Of a stretch of 64,000 nucleotides of DNA, positions 4,744-13,945 are shown in pieces; the stretch's first letter is position 1; every line of letters begins with the position of its first letter. A model generated the notes under the pieces. That model was not told where the DNA came from. It did not search any database and saw nothing but the letters and a program-made list of their open reading frames with translations. The DNA comes from Pleomorphomonas diazotrophica (GTDB taxonomy: Bacteria; Pseudomonadota; Alphaproteobacteria; Rhizobiales; Pleomorphomonadaceae), in contig NZ_PJNW01000004.1 of NCBI RefSeq assembly GCF_002844595.1, positions 124,001 through 188,000 of the forward strand, in the 5' to 3' direction. The position numbers and the translations under genes were made by a program.

Positions 4744-6279
4744 ATGACCGCACCCGCCCTCGACCATGCCGCGCCATTGACGGGCGCCCGCCTGCTGGTG
4801 GCCGCGCTCGCCATCGGCGTCGGCAACTTCCTGGTGGTGCTGGACACCACGATCGCCAACGTGTCGGTGCCGACGATTGCCGGCTCGCTGGGTGTTTCCT
4901 CCTCGCAAGGGTCGTGGGTCATCACCTCCTATGCGGTGGCCGAAGCGATCACCGTGCCGCTCACCGGCTGGCTCAGCCGGCGGTTCGGGTCCTTGCGCGT
5001 CTTTCTGGTCTGTTACTTCGCCTTTGCCGCCATCTCGGTGCTCTGCGGCCTGTCGCAATCGATCGGCATGCTGATCGGCAGCCGCGTGCTGCTTGGCCTG
5101 TTCGGCGGCCCGATCATGCCGCTGTCGCAGATGCTCCTGATGCGCATCTTCCCGCCCAAGCAGGCGACCGTCGCCTCGGTGATCTGGGCGATGACGACGC
5201 TGATCGGCCCGATCGCCGGCCCGATCCTCGGCGGCATCATCTGCGACGGCATCGGCTGGCAATGGATCTTCTTCGTCAAGGTGCCGATCGCCCTTGTCGG
5301 CGGCGCCATCGTCCTGTTTGCCACGCTGGGCCAGCCCGACCCGACCGGCCCCGCCCGCATCGACAAGATCGGTCTCGCCCTGTTGGTTCTGTGGATCGCC
5401 GCCTTGCAGATCATGCTCGACGAGGGGCGCAACCACGATTGGTTCGCCTCCGAGGAGATCCAGATCCTCGCCGTCGTCGCGGTGATCGGCTTCCTGGCCT
5501 TCGTGATCTACGAGCTGACCGAGGCGGAGCCGATCGTCGATCTCCGCATCTTCCGCCATCGCGGCTTCACGGCGGCGGCGGTCACCTTCGCCGGCGGCTT
5601 CGGGGCCTTCTTCGCCTCCATCGTCATCCTGCCGCTCTGGCTGCAGCAGAACATGGGCTATACGGCCACCTGGGCGGGCTATGCCACCGGCATCATGGGC
5701 GTGCTGGCGCTGATCTCGGCGCCGATCGTCGGCAAGGCGACGGAGAAGATCGATCCGCGCGCCATCCTGTCGGTCGGCATCCTCGGCCTCGGTGCGATGA
5801 CGGCCTGGCGCATGGGTTTCAACTCCGACGTTACCTTCGCGCAGATGGCCTTGCCGACGCTGTTCACCGGCCCGTTCATGGTGATGTTCTTCGTGCCGGT
5901 GACCGGCCTCGCCATCGCCAGCGTCAGCCCGGAGGAACAGGCCAACGCCGCCGGCCTCTCCAACTTCATGCGCACGCTGGCCGGCGCCTTCGCCACCTCG
6001 CTGGTGCAGACCGGCTGGGCGAACTCGGCGCGCGTCAACCAGACCGAACTGGTCAGCGCCATGCAGAACGGCGATCGAGTGATCGCCGGCATGATGGAGG
6101 GGGGCACTTCGCACGAGGTGGCGGTTGCCAGCCTCAGCCGCGTCGTCGAGCAACAAAGCGTGCTGCTTGCCACGCTCGACATGTTCTCGGTCATCACCGT
6201 GGTCTTCGTCCTGGCTGCTATGCTGCCTTGGCTGGCGCCCAAGCCGAAGGGCCCGATCGATACCAGTGGAGCGCATTGA
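4744..6279 (+). CDS. DHA2-family (EmrB/QacA) MFS drug exporter
   Basis: The 511-residue protein has about 14 membrane segments. The DHA2 signature LDTTIANVSVPTIAGSLG lies at about residues 35-52, motif A-like GWLSRRFGSLRVF follows, and motif C-like GPIAGPILGG is near residue 160. It is the proton-driven pump of the operon, following the adaptor gene by 4 bases. EmrB-type pumps with NodT-type channels export hydrophobic toxicants; the real substrate cannot be read from sequence. Confidence 0.94.
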   Translation: MTAPALDHAAPLTGARLLVAALAIGVGNFLVVLDTTIANVSVPTIAGSLGVSSSQGSWVITSYAVAEAITVPLTGWLSRRFGSLRVFLVCYFAFAAISVLCGLSQSIGMLIGSRVLLGLFGGPIMPLSQMLLMRIFPPKQATVASVIWAMTTLIGPIAGPILGGIICDGIGWQWIFFVKVPIALVGGAIVLFATLGQPDPTGPARIDKIGLALLVLWIAALQIMLDEGRNHDWFASEEIQILAVVAVIGFLAFVIYELTEAEPIVDLRIFRHRGFTAAAVTFAGGFGAFFASIVILPLWLQQNMGYTATWAGYATGIMGVLALISAPIVGKATEKIDPRAILSVGILGLGAMTAWRMGFNSDVTFAQMALPTLFTGPFMVMFFVPVTGLAIASVSPEEQANAAGLSNFMRTLAGAFATSLVQTGWANSARVNQTELVSAMQNGDRVIAGMMEGGTSHEVAVASLSRVVEQQSVLLATLDMFSVITVVFVLAAMLPWLAPKPKGPIDTSGAH

Positions 6280-6596
6280 TGGGACGGCCTGTCGACGAAC
6301 GAAAATACCGCTACAAGCTGCGGCTCACCGCCGAGCAGACGGACGCGGCGCGCCCGAGCATTCTGATCAACCGGCTGAAGCTGATGGAGGCGGATTCGCT
6401 GAGCTCGCCGGAGATCGGCGCGCTGGCCGACTATTCGCGGGCACATGCCAAGAAGATGAGCGAGAAAGATCGCTATATCCTAGCCTTTTCGCTGATGACG
6501 GCGCGGCAGCTTCTCGGCCGGGCGGGCGAGATGTCGTCGAGGTTCGATGAACTCAAGACCTGTCTCGACGGCATCGAGCAGGACGTGATGGCCTGA
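6279..6596 (+). CDS. Conserved-looking hypothetical protein coupled to the efflux pump gene
   Basis: This 105-residue soluble, mostly helical protein (MGRPVDERKYRYKLRL...) starts inside the stop codon of the pump gene (TGATG), so it is probably translationally coupled and co-transcribed. I recognise no domain. It is rich in charged residues with no signal peptide or membrane segment. Its fixed position suggests a role connected to the pump, but this is inference only. Confidence 0.7.
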   Translation: MGRPVDERKYRYKLRLTAEQTDAARPSILINRLKLMEADSLSSPEIGALADYSRAHAKKMSEKDRYILAFSLMTARQLLGRAGEMSSRFDELKTCLDGIEQDVMA

Positions 6597-6669
6597 GCGC
6601 CGACCATGCGCAAACGGCCCGGATGAACTCCGAGCCGTTAACAGGGCGGCAAACCAAAGGGTTTGCCCG

Positions 6670-6855
6670 TCATTTCTTCTGGTTGATCTGGGGACGCTCG
6701 TCGAGCGGCTTCGGCGTCGGGTCGATCGGCTTGCCGGCGGCGGCCCGCTGGCCGGCCTCGTTGTCCTGGCGCTTCAGCTCGCGGTCGACGATGTCGCGTG
6801 CGCCTTCCGCCGGATCCTGCTCGCGATGCTCGGTGTTCTTGGCGTTGTCGTTCAT
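6670..6855 (-). CDS. Small hydrophilic stress-type protein
   Basis: The 61-residue product (MNDNAKNTEHREQDPAEGAR...) is extremely hydrophilic, rich in Asp, Glu, Lys, Arg and Pro, and probably disordered. The start is set by a strong AAGGAGG ribosome site at 6861-6867. A GGAAC-N16-GGTT element upstream resembles promoters of the alphaproteobacterial general-stress sigma factor EcfG, whose regulons often include small proteins of this kind. No specific function can be assigned. Confidence 0.7.
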   Translation of the reverse strand: MNDNAKNTEHREQDPAEGARDIVDRELKRQDNEAGQRAAAGKPIDPTPKPLDERPQINQKK

Positions 6856-6919
6856 GACGGCCTCCTTGATGGTCCCCGGGGTGTTCGGGGCTCGGCCGGC
6901 CGCGCCGACCTCACGAGAC

Positions 6920-6944
6920 AACCGGTCACTCCGCCCTTTGTTCC
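6920..6944 (-). promoter_or_regulatory. Candidate EcfG-type general-stress promoter for the small protein
   Basis: On the minus strand a -35 GGAAC (complement of 6940-6944) is followed after 16 bases by GGTT (complement of 6920-6923). This is close to the EcfG consensus GGAAC-N16/17-CGTT. It lies 65 bases before the start codon at 6855. An identical arrangement faces the opposite way at 6973-6997. Confidence 0.55.
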
Positions 6945-6972
6945 TGACGGTAAGGTGAGGCGGCGCCCTTCG

Positions 6973-6997
6973 GGAACTTCGCCGGTCGCCATGGGTT
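6973..6997 (+). promoter_or_regulatory. Candidate EcfG-type general-stress promoter for the SDR gene
   Basis: GGAAC at 6973-6977, a 16-base spacer, then GGTT at 6994-6997, 53 bases before the SDR start at 7050. It has the same spacing and the same -10 core as the divergent element at 6920-6944, which makes chance less likely. Assignment to EcfG is by consensus similarity only. Confidence 0.55.
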
Positions 6998-7049
6998 TTA
7001 TCGTCGAGCGGCCGGCTGCGCCGGTCTCGCGCAAACCGAGGAGGACACC

Positions 7050-7850
7050 ATGGGCCAGACATATCCCGACCGCGGCATCGCCGTCATTACCGGCGCTTCG
7101 ACCGGCATCGGTCTTGAACTCACCCGCTGCGCCGCCGCCGACGGTTATGATCTCGTCATCGCCGCCGACGAGCCGGCAATCCACGAGGCCGCCGACCTGC
7201 TCGGCGAGCATGGCGTCAACATCCGCGCCGTCGAGGCCGATCTCTCTACGCCCGAGGGCATCGCCCGGCTGATCGACGTCATCGACGCCGACGGGCGCCC
7301 GGTGGAACTGTTGATGGCCAACGCCGGACGCGGCCTTGGCCACGCCTTTCTCGACCAGTCCTTCGACGACATCCGCCGGGTGGTCGACACCAACATCATG
7401 GGCACGCTGGACCTCGTCCATCGGGTCGGTCGGCAGATGCGCGAGCAGCGCTACGGCCGCATCCTGTTCACCGGATCGATCGCCGGCTACATCCCCGGCG
7501 CCTTCCAGGCGGTCTACAACGCCACCAAGGCCTTCGTGGACAGCTTCGCCTACGCGTTGCGCGAAGAGTTGTCCGACACCGGCGTCCGCGTGACGGTGTT
7601 GATGCCGGGGCCGACCGAGACGGAGTTCTTCGAGCGGGCCGACCTCATGGATACCAAGATGGCTCAGGCCGAGAAGGACGACGCCGGCTACGTGGCGCGC
7701 GCCGGCTACCGAGCCATGATGAACGGCGAGGCCGACATCGTCACCGGCTGGAGCAACAAGCTGCAGACGGCGATGGCGAGCTTCATGTCGCCGGAATCGC
7801 TGGCTCGCGGCCATCGCAAGCTGGCCGAGCCGGGCAGCGGCCTGAGCTGA
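7050..7850 (+). CDS. SDR-family NAD(P)-dependent oxidoreductase
   Basis: The 266-residue classical short-chain dehydrogenase has the cofactor motif TGASTGIG near residue 12, the structural NAG-like motif ANAGRG, catalytic Ser in FTGSIAG, and YNATK as the YxxxK active site. The ribosome site GAGGAGG stands just before ATG 7050. A stress-type promoter precedes it. The closest family label is the DltE/YdfG-like SDRs; the substrate is unknown. It may belong to the neighbouring stress island rather than to central metabolism. Confidence 0.9.
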   Translation: MGQTYPDRGIAVITGASTGIGLELTRCAAADGYDLVIAADEPAIHEAADLLGEHGVNIRAVEADLSTPEGIARLIDVIDADGRPVELLMANAGRGLGHAFLDQSFDDIRRVVDTNIMGTLDLVHRVGRQMREQRYGRILFTGSIAGYIPGAFQAVYNATKAFVDSFAYALREELSDTGVRVTVLMPGPTETEFFERADLMDTKMAQAEKDDAGYVARAGYRAMMNGEADIVTGWSNKLQTAMASFMSPESLARGHRKLAEPGSGLS

Positions 7851-7955
7851 TCTCGAGGCCGCTCGTTGAAGCACTGCCGGGCCGAGCCAGCGGCCCGGCG
7901 GCTGTGGGCCGGCCGGCTGGGGCGCACCCGGCATGGCCGGTCCTTTCGTGTTTGA

Positions 7956-7985
7956 TGATCTGAACGGCGCCTCCTGACGTATCAA
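7956..7985 (+). promoter_or_regulatory. Candidate RpoE (sigma-E) promoter of the DUF2177 gene
   Basis: TGATCT at 7956-7961, a spacer of exactly 16 bases, then CGTATCAA at 7978-7985, 20 bases before the start at 8006. The two divergent promoters next to rpoE have the same architecture (TGATCC-N16-CGTAGAA), which supports regulation of this gene by the local sigma factor. Confidence 0.65.
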
Positions 7986-8005
7986 AGACAACACTGGAGG
8001 TCGTC

Positions 8006-8410
8006 ATGCACGCCATCGCCATCTACGCAGCCGGATTGATCAGCTTTCTCGCCCTCGACGCCATCTGGCTCGGCACCATGGTGCCGCGTCTCTACAAGCC
8101 GGCCATGGGCGACCTCGTCGCCGATCCCTTCCAGCCGCTGCCGGCGGCGATCTTTTATCTGATCTACGCGGCGGGGCTCGCCTATTTCGCCATCCAGCCG
8201 GCGCTTGCCGTTGGCAAGTGGCAGACGGCGCTGATATCGGGCGCGGCATTGGGCTTCATTGCCTACGCCACCTACGATCTCACCAATCAGGCGACCATCC
8301 GCGGCTGGCCCATGGTGATCACCGTCGTCGATCTTGCCTGGGGCACGATCGCCAGTGGTCTTGCCGCGACGATCAGCTATCTCGTTCTGTCTCGATGGTT
8401 TTCGGCTTGA
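8006..8410 (+). CDS. DUF2177-family membrane protein
   Basis: The 134-residue protein is almost entirely membrane-spanning, with about four helices beginning MHAIAIYAAGLISFLALDAIWLG. It matches the DUF2177 family pattern (LDAIWLGTM near the N-terminus, ATYDLTNQATIRGWP in the third helix, DLAWGTIASG in the fourth). A TGGAGG ribosome site precedes the ATG. A sigma-E-type promoter and the neighbouring rpoE-chrR genes suggest a role in the singlet-oxygen or lipid-peroxide response. Its biochemical activity is unknown. The 3' end overlaps the convergent DUF1295 gene by 38 bases. Confidence 0.85.
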   Translation: MHAIAIYAAGLISFLALDAIWLGTMVPRLYKPAMGDLVADPFQPLPAAIFYLIYAAGLAYFAIQPALAVGKWQTALISGAALGFIAYATYDLTNQATIRGWPMVITVVDLAWGTIASGLAATISYLVLSRWFSA

Positions 8411-9164
8411 TCGGAAAGAAGGGCGAGACGCGGCGCTGATAGGCGCGGAACGTCTCGCCCCGGCTTTCCAGCATGTGGCGCTCCAGCGGCGGAATGCCGG
8501 AGACATGGACCAGCAGCCAGTAGATCGAGACCGGCGCCACCAGCACGAGGGCGGTGCGTCCGTCAAAGGCGATGCCGATCACGGCGATGCCCACCCAGAC
8601 CAGCCACTCGAAGAAGTAGTTCGGGTGGCGCGACCAGCCCCACAAGCCGCGATCGCAGACCGCCCCGGCCTTGTCGCGCCGGAAGGCGGCGAGCTGGCGG
8701 TCGGCCTGCCATTCGCCGAACAGAGCGATCAGGACGATGGCGACGCCGAGGCCATCCTGCCAATCGAGCGGGCCAGGACGCGCGGCCGCCGCCGCTGCCG
8801 ACAGCGCCAGCAGCCAGCCGGCGATGGCCTGCATTTGCAGGAAGACGAAGAGCTTGCGCGGCGCCGCCTCTCCCCAGTCGCGGCGTAGGGCCGCATAGCG
8901 CGGATCGTCGGCGCCGCTTTTCAGCGTGCGCGTGACGAGGTGACGGCCGAGGCGAACCGCCCAGATGGCAACCAGCGCCGATATGACAAGCGGACGCTCG
9001 AAGGGGCCGGAAAGGGTGAGGATCAGCGTCAGCGTGGCGGCGCCGGTCGAAATCGCCCAGATGCCGTCGATGAAGCCGGAGCGGCGCGTCTGCTCAGCGA
9101 TGACCGCCGCCGCGCCCATCGCCACCACCAGGATCGCCAGCGAGAGAAGGGCGCCAAGCAGCAT
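8373..9164 (-). CDS. DUF1295-family membrane protein (steroid 5-alpha-reductase-like)
   Basis: The 263-residue polytopic protein belongs to the DUF1295 group, related to steroid 5-alpha-reductases and ICMT methyltransferases. The C-terminal part carries the signature WGWSRHPNYFFEWLVWVG and a final RVSPFFPIKPK, typical of a cofactor-binding region. It begins two bases after the chrR stop, so it is the third gene of the rpoE-chrR operon. That context suggests a lipid-modifying reductase in the sigma-E response. The start at 9164 (MLLGALLSLAIL) was chosen because upstream sequence in frame is arginine-rich antisense of chrR. Confidence 0.88.
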   Translation of the reverse strand: MLLGALLSLAILVVAMGAAAVIAEQTRRSGFIDGIWAISTGAATLTLILTLSGPFERPLVISALVAIWAVRLGRHLVTRTLKSGADDPRYAALRRDWGEAAPRKLFVFLQMQAIAGWLLALSAAAAAARPGPLDWQDGLGVAIVLIALFGEWQADRQLAAFRRDKAGAVCDRGLWGWSRHPNYFFEWLVWVGIAVIGIAFDGRTALVLVAPVSIYWLLVHVSGIPPLERHMLESRGETFRAYQRRVSPFFPIKPKTIETERDS

Positions 9165-9166
9165 GG

Positions 9167-9817
9167 CTAGAGGCCGATCAGCGGGCTGACGAGGCGGCCG
9201 ATCAGGCCGTGCGGCCTGAGGCGGCCCTCGATGGAGGCGAGGCAGATGCAGGTTTCCTCGCCGGTGACGACCGGGGTGTGGTGGGTATCGTCGTCCTCCT
9301 CGGCGAGGTCGCCGGCGGCGCAACGCCCATGCTCGTCCTCGAAGGCGCCTTGCAGCACCAGCGTCAGTTCCTCGCCGGAGTGTCCGTGGGTGGGCATGCG
9401 CTTGCCGGCGGCGATCTTCAGGAGAATGAGGTTGGTGGCGGGGTCCTCCGGCACGTCGAGGCGGGCGAAGGCCATGCCCGGCCCCATCCAGCGCCAGCCG
9501 GAGGTCGCCCGGTCGGCGATCGGGGCGGGCAGGTAGATGCCGAGGTCGCGGACCGGGCGCCCGGCCGGCGCCGGTGCGGCGGCGGGACGCTTCTCGCCCA
9601 GGCGGGCCAGCGTCCGCTCGAACAGGCGGGCGTCGAGGTCGGAGGGCGGCAGGTCTTCAAGCAGCAGGCCACCGAGCGCCAGCATGTCGCGCTGGGTGGC
9701 GGTGCAGTCGTCGCAGAGCGCGAGATGGCTTTCCACCACCAGCGCGGCGGCCGGCGACAGCGTTCCGGCCACATAGCGGGCCATCAGTTCGGGGCTGGGG
9801 TGGCGGCTCAAGGTCAT
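9167..9817 (-). CDS. chrR: Anti-sigma factor ChrR (zinc-binding, cupin)
   Basis: This 216-residue protein binds and inhibits RpoE until singlet oxygen or certain peroxides trigger its loss. The N-terminal zinc-binding anti-sigma domain has His6, His31, Cys35 and Cys38, matching the ligand set described for Rhodobacter sphaeroides ChrR. The C-terminal cupin-like domain carries THGHSGEELTL (about residues 143-152) and a later HH pair, the second metal site needed for the singlet-oxygen response. The gene overlaps the rpoE stop by 4 bases, so the partners are made in coupled fashion. Confidence 0.95.
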   Translation of the reverse strand: MTLSRHPSPELMARYVAGTLSPAAALVVESHLALCDDCTATQRDMLALGGLLLEDLPPSDLDARLFERTLARLGEKRPAAAPAPAGRPVRDLGIYLPAPIADRATSGWRWMGPGMAFARLDVPEDPATNLILLKIAAGKRMPTHGHSGEELTLVLQGAFEDEHGRCAAGDLAEEDDDTHHTPVVTGEETCICLASIEGRLRPHGLIGRLVSPLIGL

Positions 9818-10389
9818 GACGGCTCGTCGAGCAGGTGGCGCAGGCGGTTCATGGCGAGGCGGACGCGCGACTTGACGGTGCCGAGCGGGATGCCGAGCGC
9901 TTTCGCGATTTCACTCTGCGGCGATTGGGAGAAAAAGGAGAGGGCGATCACCTCCGCCTGTTCGGCCGGCAGGCGGTCGAGGGCGCGGCGCACCCGCGTC
10001 TCCTCCTCGCGGCTGATGATCTCGCCCTCGGCCGAGGGGCTTGGGTCTATGTCGACCACCGGTTCGGCATTGGCGAAGCTGCGGGCCAGCCGGCGGCGGC
10101 GATCGATGCCGAGGTTGCGGCAGATGGTGAAGATCCAGGTGGAGACGGCGCCCGCCTCGGCGTCGAACTGACCGGCCTTGCGCCAGACGGCGAGCATGGT
10201 GTCCTGGATCAGGTCGTCGCAGTCGCTGGCGCCGAAGCCCTGCCGGGCGAGGAAGGTCTTGAGGCGCGGCGCGTAGAAGGCGAACAGCCGTGCAAAGGCC
10301 TGCCGGTCGCCGGCCTCGGCAATGGCCGCGATGAGGCGCGCCGCCTCGGCCCGGTCGAACGGACGTTCCGCTTCGCTCGCCGGTCTCAT
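9814..10389 (-). CDS. rpoE: ECF sigma factor RpoE of the singlet-oxygen response
   Basis: The 191-residue sigma factor has region 2 (DDLIQDTMLAVWRKAGQFDAEAGAVSTWIFTICRN split over residues 60-100) and region 4 (LPAEQAEVIALSFF, then GIPLGTVKSRVRLAMNRLR). It pairs with ChrR downstream. Start ATG 10389 is preferred over ATG 10452: the candidate sigma-E promoter at 10458-10486 would start transcription near 10450, leaving no leader for the longer form. It probably activates its own operon, the divergent oxidase operon and the DUF2177 gene. Confidence 0.94.
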   Translation of the reverse strand: MRPASEAERPFDRAEAARLIAAIAEAGDRQAFARLFAFYAPRLKTFLARQGFGASDCDDLIQDTMLAVWRKAGQFDAEAGAVSTWIFTICRNLGIDRRRRLARSFANAEPVVDIDPSPSAEGEIISREEETRVRRALDRLPAEQAEVIALSFFSQSPQSEIAKALGIPLGTVKSRVRLAMNRLRHLLDEPS

Positions 10390-10457
10390 GGAACTGACCG
10401 ACCGCGTTGCAGTTTCAACCAGAAGAAATGAGTTCGCCCGTTCACGTCTCATGCCTC

Positions 10458-10486
10458 TTCTACGCAAGACCCGCAGCACCGGATCA
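10458..10486 (-). promoter_or_regulatory. Candidate autoregulated RpoE promoter of rpoE-chrR
   Basis: Read on the minus strand: TGATCC (complement of 10481-10486), 16 bases, CGTAGAA (complement of 10458-10464). It lies about 70 bases before the rpoE start at 10389. The same hexamer, spacer length and heptamer occur in the divergent promoter at 10530-10558. Confidence 0.75.
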
Positions 10487-10529
10487 CCGGTGGTCGGGAT
10501 AAGCTGCGACCAGTTTCGCAGGGCCGCTG

Positions 10530-10558
10530 TGATCCTTTGCTTGGGTCCGCTCGTAGAA
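10530..10558 (+). promoter_or_regulatory. Candidate RpoE promoter of the FAD oxidase-DUF1365-cfa operon
   Basis: TGATCC at 10530-10535, a 16-base spacer, then CGTAGAA at 10552-10558, 38 bases before the start at 10597. It is an exact architectural twin of the promoter facing rpoE, so the two operons are probably induced together. Confidence 0.75.
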
Positions 10559-10596
10559 TGGATCGTACAGCAGTTTCAGCGGTAAGCGGAGTTCCC

Positions 10597-11940
10597 ATGC
10601 GCGACGCGACGAAGGATACCGACAGGCGGCTGGAGATCGCGGTGATCGGGTCGGGCATTTCCGGCCTGTCGGCGGCCTGGCTTCTGTCCGACCGGCACGA
10701 TGTGACGCTCTACGAGATCGACCGGCGGCTCGGCGGCCACAGCAACACCGTGCTGGCCCCGACCAGCGGCGCCTCCATTCCGGTCGACACCGGCTTCATC
10801 GTCTATAACGAGGTCACCTATCCCAACCTCACGGCCCTCTTCCTCCACCTCGGGGTGGAAACCCAGGCGACCGAGATGTCCTTCGCCGTGTCGATCGACA
10901 GCGGCCGCCTCGAGTATGCCGGCTCCGACCTCGCCGGCCTCCTCGCCCAGCGATCCAATCTCCTGCGCCCGCGCTTCTACGCCATGATGGCCGACCTCCT
11001 GCGCTTCTATCGGCGGGCGCCGGGCGATCTCGGCAAGCTGGAGGGCGTCACACTCGCCGACTATCTCGATGCCAACGGCTACGGCCGCGCCTTCCGCGAG
11101 GACCACCTCTATCCGATGGCGGCGGCCATCTGGTCGACGCCGGCCGCCGATGTCGGCGCCTATCCAGCCGAGGCCTTCATCCGCTTCTGCGACAACCACG
11201 GCCTCCTGAAGCTCAGCGATCGGCCGGAGTGGCGGACGGTGAAGGGCGGCAGCCGGAGCTATGTCTCCCGCCTTGCCGAGCCGCTCAGCGGGCGGGTGAT
11301 GATCGGCCGCAACGTCAGGATCGTCGAGCGGTCGGCGGCCGGCGTCGTGATAGAGGACGGGACGGTGAAGCGCCGCTTCGACAAGGTGCTGGTCGCCTGC
11401 CATGCCGATCAGGCCCTCGAGGTCGTCAAGGCGCCGACGGAGGCCGAGAGTCGCATCCTCGGCGCTTTCCGCTACAGCCGAAACTACGCCGTGCTGCATG
11501 GCGACGAGCGGCTGATGCCGCGCCGGCGGGCGGCCTGGTCGGCCTGGAACTATCTTGCCGAGAGCGACCGCTCGTCAGGCCCGTCGGTCACCTACTGGAT
11601 GAACCGGCTGCAGCACATCGACCCGTCGGTGCCGCTGTTCGTGACGCTCAATCCGCTTGTCGAGCCGCGCCTCGACCGCGTCTACAGCCACTTCACCTAC
11701 GAGCACCCTTTGTTCGACCAGGGCGCCATCGAGGCGCAGCGGCAACTCTGGTCGTTGCAGGGCGTCGGCAACGTCTGGTTCGCCGGCGCCTATTTCGGGG
11801 CGGGCTTTCACGAGGACGGATTGCAGGCCGGCCTCGCCGCCGCCGAGGCGATGGGCAAGGTGCGCCGCCCCTGGCAGGTGAAGGGTGAATCCGGCCGCAT
11901 CCACATCGGTCCGGACATCTGGGGCGAGGCGGCCGAATGA
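10597..11940 (+). CDS. FAD-dependent amine-oxidase-like protein (COG2907)
   Basis: The 447-residue flavoprotein starts with a dinucleotide-binding motif (AVIGSGISGLSAAWLL, residues 14-29), followed by YEIDRRLGGHSNTV. The C-terminal FAD motif lies in VWFAGAYFGAGFHEDGLQAG. This family sits next to DUF1365 and Cfa-like genes in many bacteria, and members of the RpoE regulon of R. sphaeroides with this context have been tied to modified (including furan) fatty acids. ATG 10597 has a GGAG site 7 bases upstream. The substrate here is inferred to be a membrane lipid acyl chain. Confidence 0.88.
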   Translation: MRDATKDTDRRLEIAVIGSGISGLSAAWLLSDRHDVTLYEIDRRLGGHSNTVLAPTSGASIPVDTGFIVYNEVTYPNLTALFLHLGVETQATEMSFAVSIDSGRLEYAGSDLAGLLAQRSNLLRPRFYAMMADLLRFYRRAPGDLGKLEGVTLADYLDANGYGRAFREDHLYPMAAAIWSTPAADVGAYPAEAFIRFCDNHGLLKLSDRPEWRTVKGGSRSYVSRLAEPLSGRVMIGRNVRIVERSAAGVVIEDGTVKRRFDKVLVACHADQALEVVKAPTEAESRILGAFRYSRNYAVLHGDERLMPRRRAAWSAWNYLAESDRSSGPSVTYWMNRLQHIDPSVPLFVTLNPLVEPRLDRVYSHFTYEHPLFDQGAIEAQRQLWSLQGVGNVWFAGAYFGAGFHEDGLQAGLAAAEAMGKVRRPWQVKGESGRIHIGPDIWGEAAE

Positions 11941-12713
11941 CCCCCGCCCTCTACGTCGGCGAGGTTCTGCACCGTCGCCTCAGGCCGACGCCTCACAGCC
12001 TGAAATACGGCGTCTACATGCTTCACGCCGATCTCGACCGGCTGGACGAGCTTCGGCGGGCGAGCCGGCTGCTGTCGGTGAACCGCTGGAATCTGCTGTC
12101 GTTCCACGAAGCCGATCATGGTCCGGCCGGCGAGGGGCGGCTGGCAACGCGCATCCGGCGGCTAGCCGACGAGCGCCGCCTAGCCTGGGACGGAACCGAG
12201 CTCACGCTGATCGCCATGCCGCGCCTTCTCGGCTTCGTGTTCAATCCGCTCACCCTCTATTTCTGCCGCAATGCCGACGGCCGGCTCGCCGCCGTCATCT
12301 ACGAGGTGCGCAACACTTTCGGCGGCATGCATCATTATGCCGAGACGGTCGCTCCGGACGCGGCCGGTACCATCCATCAGGCGGCGGAGAAGCAGTTCTA
12401 CGTCTCGCCCTTCCTGCCGATGGAGATGCGCTACCGCTTCCACGTCAAGCCGCCGGGCGAGCGCTTCACCATCGCCATCGAGGATCACGACCGGGACGGC
12501 CTGATGCTGACGGCGTCCATGTCGCTGACGCGCCAAGCGCTCGGCGACCGGGCGCTCGCCGGCCTCTTCCTCCGCTTTCCGCTGATGACGCTGAAGGTGG
12601 TGGCAGGCATCCACTGGGAGGCGCTGAAGCTGTGGCGGAAGCGCATTCCCTTCCATTCCCGCCCCGGTGGCGGCCCCAAGGGGTTCAATCCAACGGAAAG
12701 GTCATCCGGATGA
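11937..12713 (+). CDS. DUF1365-family protein
   Basis: The 258-residue protein overlaps the preceding gene by ATGA. It shows DUF1365 hallmarks: an N-terminal YVGEVLHRRLRPTPHSLKYGVYML, the central MPRLLGFVFNPLTLYFC, and FGGMHHYAE followed by KQFYVSPFLPM. The enzymatic role is unproven. The constant neighbourhood with the FAD oxidase and Cfa-type methyltransferase suggests a step in acyl-chain modification. No signal peptide or clear membrane helix is seen. Confidence 0.92.
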   Translation: MTPALYVGEVLHRRLRPTPHSLKYGVYMLHADLDRLDELRRASRLLSVNRWNLLSFHEADHGPAGEGRLATRIRRLADERRLAWDGTELTLIAMPRLLGFVFNPLTLYFCRNADGRLAAVIYEVRNTFGGMHHYAETVAPDAAGTIHQAAEKQFYVSPFLPMEMRYRFHVKPPGERFTIAIEDHDRDGLMLTASMSLTRQALGDRALAGLFLRFPLMTLKVVAGIHWEALKLWRKRIPFHSRPGGGPKGFNPTERSSG

Positions 12714-13945
12714 CGTCGCTGTCGATCTCAACGCTCATCCCTTCGATCGTCGGCCTGGCATTGCCGACCCGGCTGCGCGTTTCCCTGGTGGAGCGCATGC
12801 TCGGTCATATCGATCGCGGGCGCCTGTCCGTGGTACTGCCGGACGGAACGCAGCTTGCGGCGGCCGGCCGCGAGCCCGGCGCGGTGGCCGAACTCAGGAT
12901 CCTGCGCTGGCGGGCGGTGATCCGCCTGCTGACCGGTGGCGACGTCGGCTTTGCCGAAGCCTATGTCGACGGCGACTGGGACACGCCGGACCTCGTCGCA
13001 TTCCTCACTCTTTGCGCCGACAATCTCGACAGGCTGAATACGGCCGCTAAACCCTCATGGCCGGTACGGCTGGCGCGTCGCCTCCTCATGCTGATGCGCC
13101 GCAACTCCAAGGCCGGCAGCCGGCGCAACATCATGGCCCACTACGACCTCGGCAACGCCTTCTTCGCCGAGTGGCTCGACCGGGAGATGATCTATTCTTC
13201 GGCGCTCTACGAGGAGGGCGACGATCTCGAAGCCGCCCAGCGGCGCAAGTTCCAGCGCATCGCCGCCATGCTGCATCTCGACGGTAGTCAGTCGGTGCTG
13301 GAAATCGGCTGCGGCTGGGGCGGGCTTGCCGCCTATCTCGCCGATGCCGGCGCGCGTTCGGTGCGCGGAATCACGCTGTCGCCGGCCCAGATCGAGGTGG
13401 CCGAGGAAAAGGTGCAGCGGCGCGGGCTCGACGGTCAGGTGTCGCTGGAACTGCGAGACTACCGCGACATCGAAGGGCAATACGACCGCGTGGTGTCGAT
13501 CGAGATGTTCGAGGCGGTGGGCGAGGCCTACTGGCGCGGCTATTTCGACAAGCTCCGGCAGGCGCTGAAGCCTGGGGGAAGGGCGGTGCTGCAGGTGATC
13601 ACCATCGCCGACGACCGCTTCGAGCACTACCGCAGCCATCCCGACATGATCCAGACGCTGGTCTTCCCCGGCGGCATGCTGCCGAGCCAGACGATCTTCG
13701 CCGATGTGGCGAAAGAGGCAGGCCTTGCGCTCACCGACCGCCTCGACTTCGGCCTCTCCTATGCCAAGACGCTGGCCGACTGGCGCCAGCGCTTCGAGGC
13801 CGCCTGGCCGCGCATCGCCAACCTTGGCTACTCCCCCGCCTTCAAGCGCCTCTGGTCCTACTACCTCGCCTACTGCGAGGCCGGGTTCCGGACGGGGCGC
13901 ATCGACGTGAGCCTTTATGCGCTGGAGCCGGTGGGGAGCTCCTAA
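12710..13945 (+). CDS. cfa: Cyclopropane-fatty-acyl-phospholipid synthase family methyltransferase
   Basis: This 411-residue SAM-dependent enzyme acts on unsaturated acyl chains of phospholipids. An N-terminal lipid-binding part (GDVGFAEAYVDGDWDTPDL, about residues 77-95) precedes the methyltransferase fold with motif I EIGCGWGGLAAYLA (about 200) and VVSIEMFEAVG. The ATG overlaps the DUF1365 stop as ATGA. Under the inferred RpoE control it could make cyclopropane, methyl-branched or furan-precursor fatty acids; sequence alone does not distinguish classical Cfa from the UfaM-type methylase. Confidence 0.92.
   Translation: MTSLSISTLIPSIVGLALPTRLRVSLVERMLGHIDRGRLSVVLPDGTQLAAAGREPGAVAELRILRWRAVIRLLTGGDVGFAEAYVDGDWDTPDLVAFLTLCADNLDRLNTAAKPSWPVRLARRLLMLMRRNSKAGSRRNIMAHYDLGNAFFAEWLDREMIYSSALYEEGDDLEAAQRRKFQRIAAMLHLDGSQSVLEIGCGWGGLAAYLADAGARSVRGITLSPAQIEVAEEKVQRRGLDGQVSLELRDYRDIEGQYDRVVSIEMFEAVGEAYWRGYFDKLRQALKPGGRAVLQVITIADDRFEHYRSHPDMIQTLVFPGGMLPSQTIFADVAKEAGLALTDRLDFGLSYAKTLADWRQRFEAAWPRIANLGYSPAFKRLWSYYLAYCEAGFRTGRIDVSLYALEPVGSS

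What the first reader, a model, noticed from the sequence alone, without database searches (positions are those of the whole stretch)
7956..13945. Singlet-oxygen sigma-E island with three matching promoters and a lipid-modification operon
Three sites share TGATCY-N16-CGTA: in front of rpoE, of the FAD oxidase-DUF1365-cfa operon, and of the DUF2177 gene. ChrR keeps His6, His31, Cys35 and Cys38. From established work on Rhodobacter sphaeroides, RpoE-ChrR responds to singlet oxygen and some of its targets modify acyl chains, including furan fatty acids. Here the DUF1295 reductase-like gene sits inside the rpoE operon and the DUF2177 membrane protein has its own promoter. The combined set may be a fuller lipid-protection pathway with unassigned steps.
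Basis: partly seen in the sequence, partly recalled or inferred. Interest (0 to 1): 0.75.

Follow-up and report, generated by a model that had tools for sequence, protein, structure and literature searches.

The report
Singlet-oxygen regulon with furan-lipid genes
This stretch holds a known bacterial alarm system for light-generated singlet oxygen together with the known genes for protective furan fatty acids, plus two uncharacterised membrane-protein genes that seem to belong to the same lipid response and whose families also turn up in the singlet-oxygen response of a green alga.

Summary
TGATCY-N16-CGTA occurs exactly three times in the window (0.12 expected), before rpoE, ufaD and DUF2177; all three sites recur in 8 of 8 near relatives. 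The core is known: an RpoE-ChrR (ECF11) pair and the furan-fatty-acid genes ufaD-ufaO-ufaM. The "cfa" gene is UfaM, not a cyclopropane synthase (SEAQIY where E. coli CFA and this genome's second CFA-type gene have CEHHIY). Open are DUF1295, directly after chrR, and DUF2177. Both sit with rpoE-chrR and ufa genes in distant genomes; DUF2177 has its own sigma-E site in 6 of 17 distant linked loci and 0 of 31 unlinked. DUF1295 has a steroid-5-alpha-reductase-like fold. Two leads, connected in no paper my searches returned: DUF1295, DUF2177, DUF1365 and two CFA-type genes are all SAK1-dependent singlet-oxygen genes in Chlamydomonas (published table); and 3 of 3 Bacillota loci read have DUF2177 - fatty-acid-kinase fusion - DUF1295. 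Since UfaM, UfaD and UfaO are reported to suffice for the furan, the two proteins most likely act beside or after its synthesis, DUF1295 as an acyl C=C reductase (inferred). New variant of a known regulon.

The parts
7956..7981 (+). sigma-E (ECF11) type promoter of DUF2177: TGATCT-N16-CGTA; 24 bp from CGTA to the ATG
   Evidence: present in 8 of 8 close relatives and 6 of 17 distant ufa-linked DUF2177 loci
8006..8410 (+). DUF2177 membrane protein, 134 aa, four predicted helices; D18, A47, Y51, G83, Y87, D109, W112 and G113 invariant in 32 sequences
   Evidence: Pfam 9e-43; alignment A1; model pLDDT 88.5
8373..9164 (-). DUF1295 membrane protein, 263 aa, steroid-5-alpha-reductase/sterol-reductase-like fold; starts 2 nt after the chrR stop; convergent 38-bp overlap with DUF2177
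   Evidence: sequence; Pfam 3.4e-61; VIA Z 10.8 to 7c83, 9.8 to 4quv; HMM hits to SRD5A
9167..9817 (-). ChrR zinc anti-sigma factor (H6, H31, C35, C38; cupin HxH and CxC)
9814..10479 (-). RpoE, ECF sigma factor; the listed GTG start overlaps the promoter, so the true start is further in (ATG at 10452 or 10389)
10461..10486 (-). sigma-E type promoter of rpoE-chrR-DUF1295: TGATCC-N16-CGTA
10530..10555 (+). sigma-E type promoter of ufaD-ufaO-ufaM: TGATCC-N16-CGTA
10597..11940 (+). UfaD-like FAD-dependent acyl desaturase
   Evidence: Pfam amine oxidase family; gene order and family as RPA2571
11937..12713 (+). UfaO-like (DUF1365) furan-forming oxygenase
   Evidence: Pfam 3.4e-78; UfaO is a DUF1365 protein
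12710..13945 (+). UfaM-like acyl methylase, not a canonical cyclopropane synthase (SEAQIY signature)

Best explanation
This is an ECF11 (RpoE-ChrR) singlet-oxygen regulon of a Pleomorphomonas-like alphaproteobacterium. Singlet oxygen releases RpoE from ChrR; RpoE then transcribes three units: rpoE-chrR-DUF1295, ufaD-ufaO-ufaM and DUF2177. UfaM methylates cis-vaccenoyl chains on phospholipids, UfaD desaturates the product and UfaO adds oxygen to give the monomethyl furan fatty acid 9M5-FuFA, which scavenges singlet oxygen and sustains ChrR turnover. The genome has no FufM-like gene, so no dimethyl furan is expected. DUF1295 and DUF2177 are co-regulated auxiliaries acting on membrane acyl chains, not needed to build the furan. 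DUF1295 is most likely a membrane NAD(P)H-dependent C=C reductase of the steroid-5-alpha-reductase kind; my best guess at its substrate is the unsaturated dicarbonyl acyl chain formed when a furan meets singlet oxygen, or a related oxidised or methylated chain. DUF2177 is its small four-helix partner. Shown here: gene content, sites, conservation, predicted fold of DUF1295. From papers: the R. sphaeroides/R. palustris chemistry and regulation. Inferred: regulation in this organism, the activity of DUF1295, the partnership.
For: Promoters: 3 exact sites, 0.12 expected, 8 of 8 relatives; TGATCC-N16-CGTA stands before the P. syringae homologue PSPTO_1043 (passages). Pathway: UfaM/UfaD/UfaO families in the RPA2571-2569 order; SEAQIY signature; no FufM-like gene (best match 33%, and that is UfaM itself). 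Auxiliaries: distant linked loci; DUF2177 within 5.2 kb of DUF1365 in 6 of the 18 class-sample genomes that have both, the window's own included, against 0 of 24 for the control family DUF2254 (read off; tested, p=0.0035); strict sigma-E site before DUF2177 in 6 of 17 distant linked and 0 of 31 unlinked loci (Fisher p=0.001, not corrected for kinship). Fold: DUF1295 model to PbSRD5A Z 10.8, C14 sterol reductase 9.8, SRD5A2 8.7; first unrelated row 5.9; HMM to PbSRD5A E 5e-4. DUF1295 D156, R163, N183 and E187 (numbers of alignment A2, one above the protein's) fall on SRD5A2 D164, R171, N193 and E197 (SRD5A2 numbering and roles recalled); over the 14 rows of A2, D156 and N183 are invariant, R163 is R in 10 and K in 4, E187 is E in 12 and D in 2. 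Chlamydomonas: CFA1, CFA2, DUF1365, DUF2177 and DUF1295 are 5 of the 104 SAK1-dependent genes. Bacillota: DUF2177 - Dak2/FakA/DegV fusion - DUF1295 contiguous in 3 of 3 loci read.
Against: No expression or lipid data for this organism. Presence/absence of DUF2177 with DUF1365 is not specific: the control DUF2254 goes with DUF1365 about as often (24 of 28, p=2e-5). Only 4 of 67 class-sample genomes with ChrR over its cut-off have DUF2177 within 10 kb of it, and 5 of 67 have DUF1295 (my count), so the auxiliaries are a minority option. 31 of 48 distant DUF2177 loci have no ufa gene in the stretch held, and their neighbours share no family (none in more than 3 of 105). DUF2177-DUF1295 also occurs in a clostridium, so a singlet-oxygen or furan-specific role is not general. 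DUF1295 also resembles ICMT, a methyltransferase (Z 8.1); Foldseek itself gave no significant hit, and the tool warns that Z under about 13 can be a common arrangement for helical proteins. DUF2177 has no fold match. Deleting RSP1087, RSP1088 or RSP1089 did not change the furan profile of R. sphaeroides, so not every gene of this regulon shapes furans.
Confidence: 0.6

Rival explanations
1. DUF1295 is a membrane methyltransferase of the ICMT/PEMT kind that methylates a lipid, so the island makes an additional methylated lipid rather than reducing one.
For: ICMT is in the same fold group (Z 8.1 and 7.0; HMM E 0.012; Pfam ICMT 2.2e-4, below its cut-off); PEMT matches the Listeria DUF1295 at 4.3e-6.
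Against: The reductases score higher (Z 10.8, 9.8; HMM 5e-4; Steroid_dh 6.3e-8 for the Listeria protein); residues aligned with the SRD5A2 cofactor and catalytic positions are kept.
Confidence: 0.2
2. DUF1295 and DUF2177 act on free or salvaged fatty acids: they process damaged or unusual acyl chains released from phospholipids, as their operon with a fused fatty-acid kinase in Bacillota suggests, and the sigma-E regulon has recruited this repair pair.
For: 3 of 3 Bacillota loci read: DUF2177 - Dak2/FakA-M/DegV fusion - DUF1295; an esterase-like gene between chrR and DUF1295 in Mesorhizobium terrae.
Against: No fatty-acid kinase in the window island; only 3 Bacillota loci were read, all from records of the plasmid collection.
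Confidence: 0.25
3. DUF2177 and DUF1295 are bystanders: sigma-E sites drive them, but they serve general envelope stress and have no shared lipid chemistry.
For: 31 of 48 distant DUF2177 loci are unlinked with no common neighbour; presence/absence co-occurrence is not specific.
Against: Linkage and sigma-E sites recur in distant genera; the same families recur in the Chlamydomonas response and as a pair in Bacillota.
Confidence: 0.2
4. The operon makes cyclopropane fatty acids (as 'cfa' implies) and protection is by removing double bonds rather than by furans.
For: The protein is in the CMAS family and its best solved relative is E. coli CFA synthase.
Against: S, A and Q at the CFA columns C139, H240 and H266; SEAQIY in 17 of 19 UfaM-type copies in other loci, while the genome's other CFA-type gene keeps CEHHIY; NCBIfam CFA cut-off missed (254.9 vs 400); ufaD and ufaO in the same operon.
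Confidence: 0.05

Closest known systems
RpoE-ChrR (ECF11) singlet-oxygen regulon of Rhodobacter sphaeroides
   Same: rpoE-chrR pair, zinc ligands, cupin half, furan-fatty-acid genes as targets; TGATCC-N16-CGTA promoter as in the P. syringae homologue
   Different: DUF1295 follows chrR and DUF2177 has its own site; neither is in the core list as shown in the passages of PMC5507510 that I read
Furan fatty acid genes ufaM, ufaD, ufaO (R. sphaeroides RSP2144/1091/1090; R. palustris RPA2569/2571/2570)
   Same: same three families; same order as R. palustris
   Different: no FufM-like gene in the genome; DUF1295 and DUF2177 added
SAK1-dependent singlet-oxygen acclimation in Chlamydomonas reinhardtii (PMC4067076, Table 5)
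   Same: CFA1, CFA2, DUF1365, DUF2177 and DUF1295 genes induced together
   Different: eukaryote with an unrelated regulator; family labels taken from the table, sequences not compared here
Steroid 5-alpha-reductase / sterol reductase / ICMT fold group
   Same: predicted fold of DUF1295 and the residues aligned with the SRD5A2 cofactor and catalytic positions
   Different: bacterial, in a lipid-stress operon, substrate unknown
Fatty acid kinase (FakA/FakB) of Bacillota
   Same: DUF2177 and DUF1295 flank a FakA-DegV fusion in Listeria, Enterococcus and Acetoanaerobium
   Different: no ufa genes annotated in the Listeria stretch and no UfaO or UfaM match in the other two

Membership tests
ECF11 RpoE-ChrR | ECF sigma factor with sigma-70 regions 2 and 4 | tested here: met
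ECF11 RpoE-ChrR | adjacent ChrR with zinc ligands H6, H31, C35, C38 and a C-terminal cupin | tested here: met
   (TIGR02451 met; equivalog NF051881 cut-off not reached)
ECF11 RpoE-ChrR | TGATCC-N16-CGTA site before rpoE | tested here: met
   sequence only; function not tested
ECF11 RpoE-ChrR | activation by singlet oxygen | not testable with these tools
   needs RNA or reporter data
UfaM/UfaD/UfaO furan-fatty-acid operon | DUF1365 (UfaO), amine-oxidase-like FAD protein (UfaD) and CMAS-family methylase (UfaM) together | tested here: met
   order as R. palustris
UfaM/UfaD/UfaO furan-fatty-acid operon | direct comparison with the characterised R. sphaeroides or R. palustris proteins | not tested
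Cyclopropane fatty acid synthase (CFA) | active-site residues C139, E239, H240, H266, I268, Y317 (E. coli numbering recalled; residues seen in the 6bqc alignment) | tested here: not met
   window has S, E, A, Q, I, Y; NCBIfam cut-off missed
Steroid 5-alpha-reductase fold group (DUF1295) | shared membrane fold | tested here: met
   VIA Z 10.8 to 7c83; the six best rows are all of this fold group, next 5.9; HMM E 5e-4. Caveats: predicted model; Foldseek not significant
Steroid 5-alpha-reductase fold group (DUF1295) | residues at SRD5A2 D164, R171, N193, E197 | tested here: met
   aligned D156, R163, N183, E187 of A2; their roles are recalled
Steroid 5-alpha-reductase fold group (DUF1295) | NADPH-dependent C=C reduction | not testable with these tools
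   needs enzyme assay
FufM (dimethyl-FuFA methylase) | coclaurine-N-methyltransferase-like methylase in the genome | tested here: not met
   best matches in the genome are UfaM (33%), the second CFA-type gene (29%) and a weak 24% match

The most novel reading that the evidence does not exclude
DUF2177 and DUF1295 form an ancient, unrecognised membrane pair that reduces or repairs unusual or photo-oxidised acyl chains. It has been drawn independently into the sigma-E furan-lipid regulon of Proteobacteria, the SAK1 singlet-oxygen response of green algae and a fatty-acid-kinase operon of Bacillota. In the window it would clear the reactive unsaturated dicarbonyl lipids left when furan fatty acids quench singlet oxygen, closing a scavenging cycle whose second half is unknown.
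Probability: 0.3. Interest if true: 0.75.

Novelty: new variant of a known kind. Interest (0 to 1): 0.5.

Why it matters
Furan fatty acids protect cells from singlet oxygen, but the passages I read do not say what becomes of the reacted lipids. Two families without known function now have a testable place next to that chemistry. The coincidence with the Chlamydomonas response suggests that bacteria and algae share more of this lipid response than the CFA-type genes already noted in a 2021 review (PMC8491031), which names neither family in the passages read. The SEAQIY/CEHHIY difference also offers a simple way to keep UfaM genes from being annotated as cfa.

Tried and rejected
Presence/absence co-occurrence: DUF2177 with DUF1365 looked strong (18 of 19, p=1.3e-5), but the arbitrary control DUF2254 did about as well (24 of 28, p=2e-5), so I dropped it as evidence and kept physical linkage and promoters. 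DUF2177 with DUF1295 (8 of 19, p=0.0016; I counted only DUF1295 matches above 50 bits) and DUF1295 with DUF1365 (23 of 27) carry the same doubt.

Photolyase as a general DUF2177 partner: of 105 neighbouring ORFs of 31 unlinked DUF2177 loci, one matched the photolyase family PF03441 (Listeria). Neighbours above 700 aa were left out of that scan, genes were called by a simple longest-ORF rule, and L063 gave neighbours on one side only.

Fold of DUF2177: Foldseek and VIA gave no convincing match (best Z 7.1 over 118 residues). WbaP, FtsX and complex I rows are likely common helix bundles. An HMM search of solved structures found nothing. Foldseek alone gave no significant match for DUF1295; the evidence is the VIA second look plus the HMM hits. 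Each model rests on 9 sequences: DUF1295 on seven relatives at 63-81% identity and one at 35%, DUF2177 on six at 80-92% and two at 46 and 40%.

The 8 other genome matches of the promoter pattern: by eye one lies before a Lon-like gene, one before or within a rhodanese-like gene, one at the end of groEL, the others inside genes or not clearly before one. No family search was made on them. I treat them as mostly chance.

Viral DUF2177: one viral-contig hit, not pursued. Mycobacterial SigK locus: I recalled a similar gene set there, but the paper search did not show the DUF1295 label, so it is not used. The SDR gene at 7050-7850 was considered as part of the island: it is found in 3 of 8 relatives (L020, L022, L024; L023 holds only 480 bases upstream), so it is left out.

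Dufour et al. 2008, which defined the core ECF11 regulon, is not held. It and Lourenco and Gomes 2009 (Caulobacter) may already list DUF1295 or DUF2177 genes; I have read neither. Caulobacter vibrioides, a control genome, matches DUF2177, DUF1365, DUF1295 and ChrR. Statements that something is not in print rest in this library only; of the 14 papers that hold DUF1295 I saw passages of the Chlamydomonas paper and only the listing of the rest; of the 3 that hold DUF2177 I saw passages.

Rows dropped or left out: L025 (internal stop in DUF2177) from the tree and the structure alignments, but kept in the promoter counts; alignment A1 took 32 of the 36 DUF2177 loci then held (L021, L022, L023, L025 left out); L022 is also not in A4; L001-L019 (short copies of loci fetched again at length) and L047-L054 (other genome matches) are in no locus count. 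Some unlinked stretches are cut short by contig ends (L034, L039, L040, L063), so 'unlinked' is a lower bound on linkage.
Full report
Observation. The genome has 11 matches, 3 of them here; the 8 others are about what chance gives by my scaling, although the reversed-pattern control gave 0. In the 8 closest relatives (L020-L027: Pleomorphomonas, Oryzibacter and two MAGs labelled only Proteobacteria, found) all three sites are present in 8 of 8 while the spacer sequence varies. The same motif with the same spacing stands before the P. syringae homologue (PMC5507510, passages). ChrR carries the four zinc ligands and the cupin motifs.

What the genes are. Pfam names all seven proteins. The divergent operon is FAD oxidase, DUF1365, CMAS-type methylase. 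In R. sphaeroides and R. palustris these three families are UfaD, UfaO and UfaM, which turn cis-vaccenoyl chains on phospholipids into the furan fatty acid 9M5-FuFA; RPA2571-2570-2569 has the same order and is necessary and sufficient in R. palustris (PMC7380195: outline with abstract, sections 8 and 9, passages). A review of the regulon (PMC6852236, sections 15 and 16) places furan-lipid genes in a core of about 8 genes. So the operon is known.

The methylase is not a canonical cyclopropane synthase. Aligned with E. coli CFA (6bqc) it has S for C139, A for H240 and Q for H266. Of 19 UfaM-type copies in other loci that cover these columns, 17 read SEAQIY, one AEAQIY (L033) and one CEAQIY (L057); the genome's second CFA-type gene (L084) reads CEHHIY like E. 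coli. Of 9 FufM-like copies 8 read CEHHFY and one SEHHFY (matches with E up to 1e-15 only; sorting into UfaM and FufM types is mine, by length, identity and place).

DUF1295 and DUF2177. DUF1295 starts 2 nt after the chrR stop and so probably shares the rpoE promoter; it is next to chrR in all 8 relatives (in one, L022, DUF2177 lies about 5 kb away from DUF1295). Beyond the family I looked at 48 more DUF2177 loci: 18 from the class sample (19 of 190 genomes have the family, the window's included), 20 from 19 genomes of the phylum sample (41 of 299 genomes have it), 8 of 59 plasmid records, 1 viral contig and Roseateles. 17 of the 48 have a UfaD-type gene in the stretch held, most with further ufa genes; 31 have none. 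A strict sigma-E site lies within 250 bp upstream of DUF2177 in 6 of the 17 (L033, L035, L043, L055, L079, L081) and in 0 of the 31; background is 0.007 per stretch of that length (Fisher p=0.001). L035 and L043 belong to one genus, so these are 5 independent genera; in L055 the site lies about 60 bp before the annotated start. In L056, L060 and L062 DUF2177 follows chrR or ufa genes on the same strand and may not need its own site. On a DUF2177 tree of 56 rows the linked state needs 8 changes against 18.7 for shuffled labels: clustered, but gained or lost several times.

The wider module. 9 loci have a second CMAS-type methylase (L028, L032, L033, L037, L055, L056, L062, L069, L081); in 7 of them (all but L032 and L037) it lies next to DUF1295 by coordinates. 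Where read at natural length it has about 345 aa. For L033 its best solved relative is coclaurine N-methyltransferase (E 2.6e-56), well ahead of CFA (1.6e-28). FufM has a plant relative, LIME1 (PMC10940516, passages); I infer from the CNMT likeness that the second methylase is FufM-like, without a direct comparison. The window's genome has none.

Algae. Table 5 of the Chlamydomonas SAK1 paper (PMC4067076, section 8 part 1 of 4 and passages) lists 104 SAK1-dependent singlet-oxygen genes. Among them are CFA1, CFA2 (called coclaurine N-methyltransferase in Table 9), DUF1365, DUF2177 and DUF1295: every lipid-gene family of this island except a separately named FAD desaturase (in Arabidopsis the methylase AT3G23510 also matches UfaD). 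In the passages I read, the paper and a later review (PMC8491031) link only the CFA genes to the bacterial response. I could not compare algal sequences, and the DUF2177 model is marked not found in the newer genome version.

Bacillota. In Listeria innocua, Enterococcus raffinosus and Acetoanaerobium noterae, DUF2177, a fusion protein and DUF1295 are contiguous on one strand. The fusion has Dak2, FakA-like and DegV domains in Listeria and is 44% and 35% identical over about 580 residues in the other two, that is, probably a fused fatty-acid kinase. I read 3 of the 6 Bacillota records among the 59 plasmid hits. Acetoanaerobium belongs to the Clostridia, mostly anaerobes (recalled), so the pair's basic chemistry need not involve oxygen.

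Fold. The DUF1295 model (pLDDT 80) matches steroid 5-alpha-reductase (Z 10.8), C14 sterol reductase (9.8), plant Tam46 (9.2), SRD5A2 (8.7) and ICMT (8.1, 7.0), and then drops to 5.9 for unrelated proteins. The tool cautions that Z under about 13 can be a common arrangement for helical proteins; the independent HMM hits to the same group are why I accept it. Aligned residues favour a reductase. DUF2177 is a confident four-helix model (pLDDT 88.5) with no match and with invariant D18, Y51, Y87, D109 and W112 among others, as expected if its helices line a binding or catalytic site.

How it most likely works. Singlet oxygen frees RpoE; furan lipids are made and consumed; their reaction with singlet oxygen gives unsaturated dicarbonyl chains (general furan chemistry, recalled). 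A membrane C=C reductase under the same control would be apt to disarm them. Since UfaM, UfaD and UfaO suffice for furan synthesis in the species studied, DUF1295 and DUF2177 most likely act elsewhere than in ring formation. This last step is inference.

Against. Presence/absence association failed its control. The auxiliaries accompany few ChrR systems (4 and 5 of 67 over the cut-off, counted; broken contigs may hide some). Many DUF2177 genes are elsewhere (31 of 48). Nothing here shows expression or activity.

Verdict. A real island; its core is known; its DUF1295/DUF2177 extension is a new variant with two cross-lineage leads that make it worth testing.

Noticed in passing
L061, L085, L086: DUF2177 - fused fatty-acid kinase (Dak2, FakA-like, DegV) - DUF1295 is contiguous in three Bacillota, with a photolyase gene just upstream in Listeria innocua.
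   Followed up: partly
L057 (Legionella lytica plasmid) 4968-12905: Photolyase, SDR, DUF2177, DUF1295, DUF2878, UfaM-type (CEAQIY), DUF1365 and FAD oxidase lie together; no RpoE or ChrR match in the stretch held.
   Followed up: no
L055 10012-10776 (Mesorhizobium terrae plasmid): An esterase-like alpha/beta hydrolase sits between chrR and DUF1295.
   Followed up: no
L062 and L056 (Rhizobium plasmids): L062 carries rpoE-chrR, ufaD, ufaO, ufaM, a FufM-like gene, DUF1295 and DUF2177 on a plasmid typed conjugative, with TspO and DUF2147 genes; L056 is alike, but no UfaO match was found there.
   Followed up: no
outside the window: Papers report DUF2177 in heliorhodopsin operons (PMC11109279, passages) and in chlorovirus PBCV-1 A624R (PMC6163359, passage), further light- or alga-related settings.
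   Followed up: no
window 8373-8410: DUF2177 and DUF1295 are convergent and overlap by 38 bp; an overlap of about 30 bp or more is seen in 7 of 8 relatives (coordinates; not in L022).
   Followed up: no
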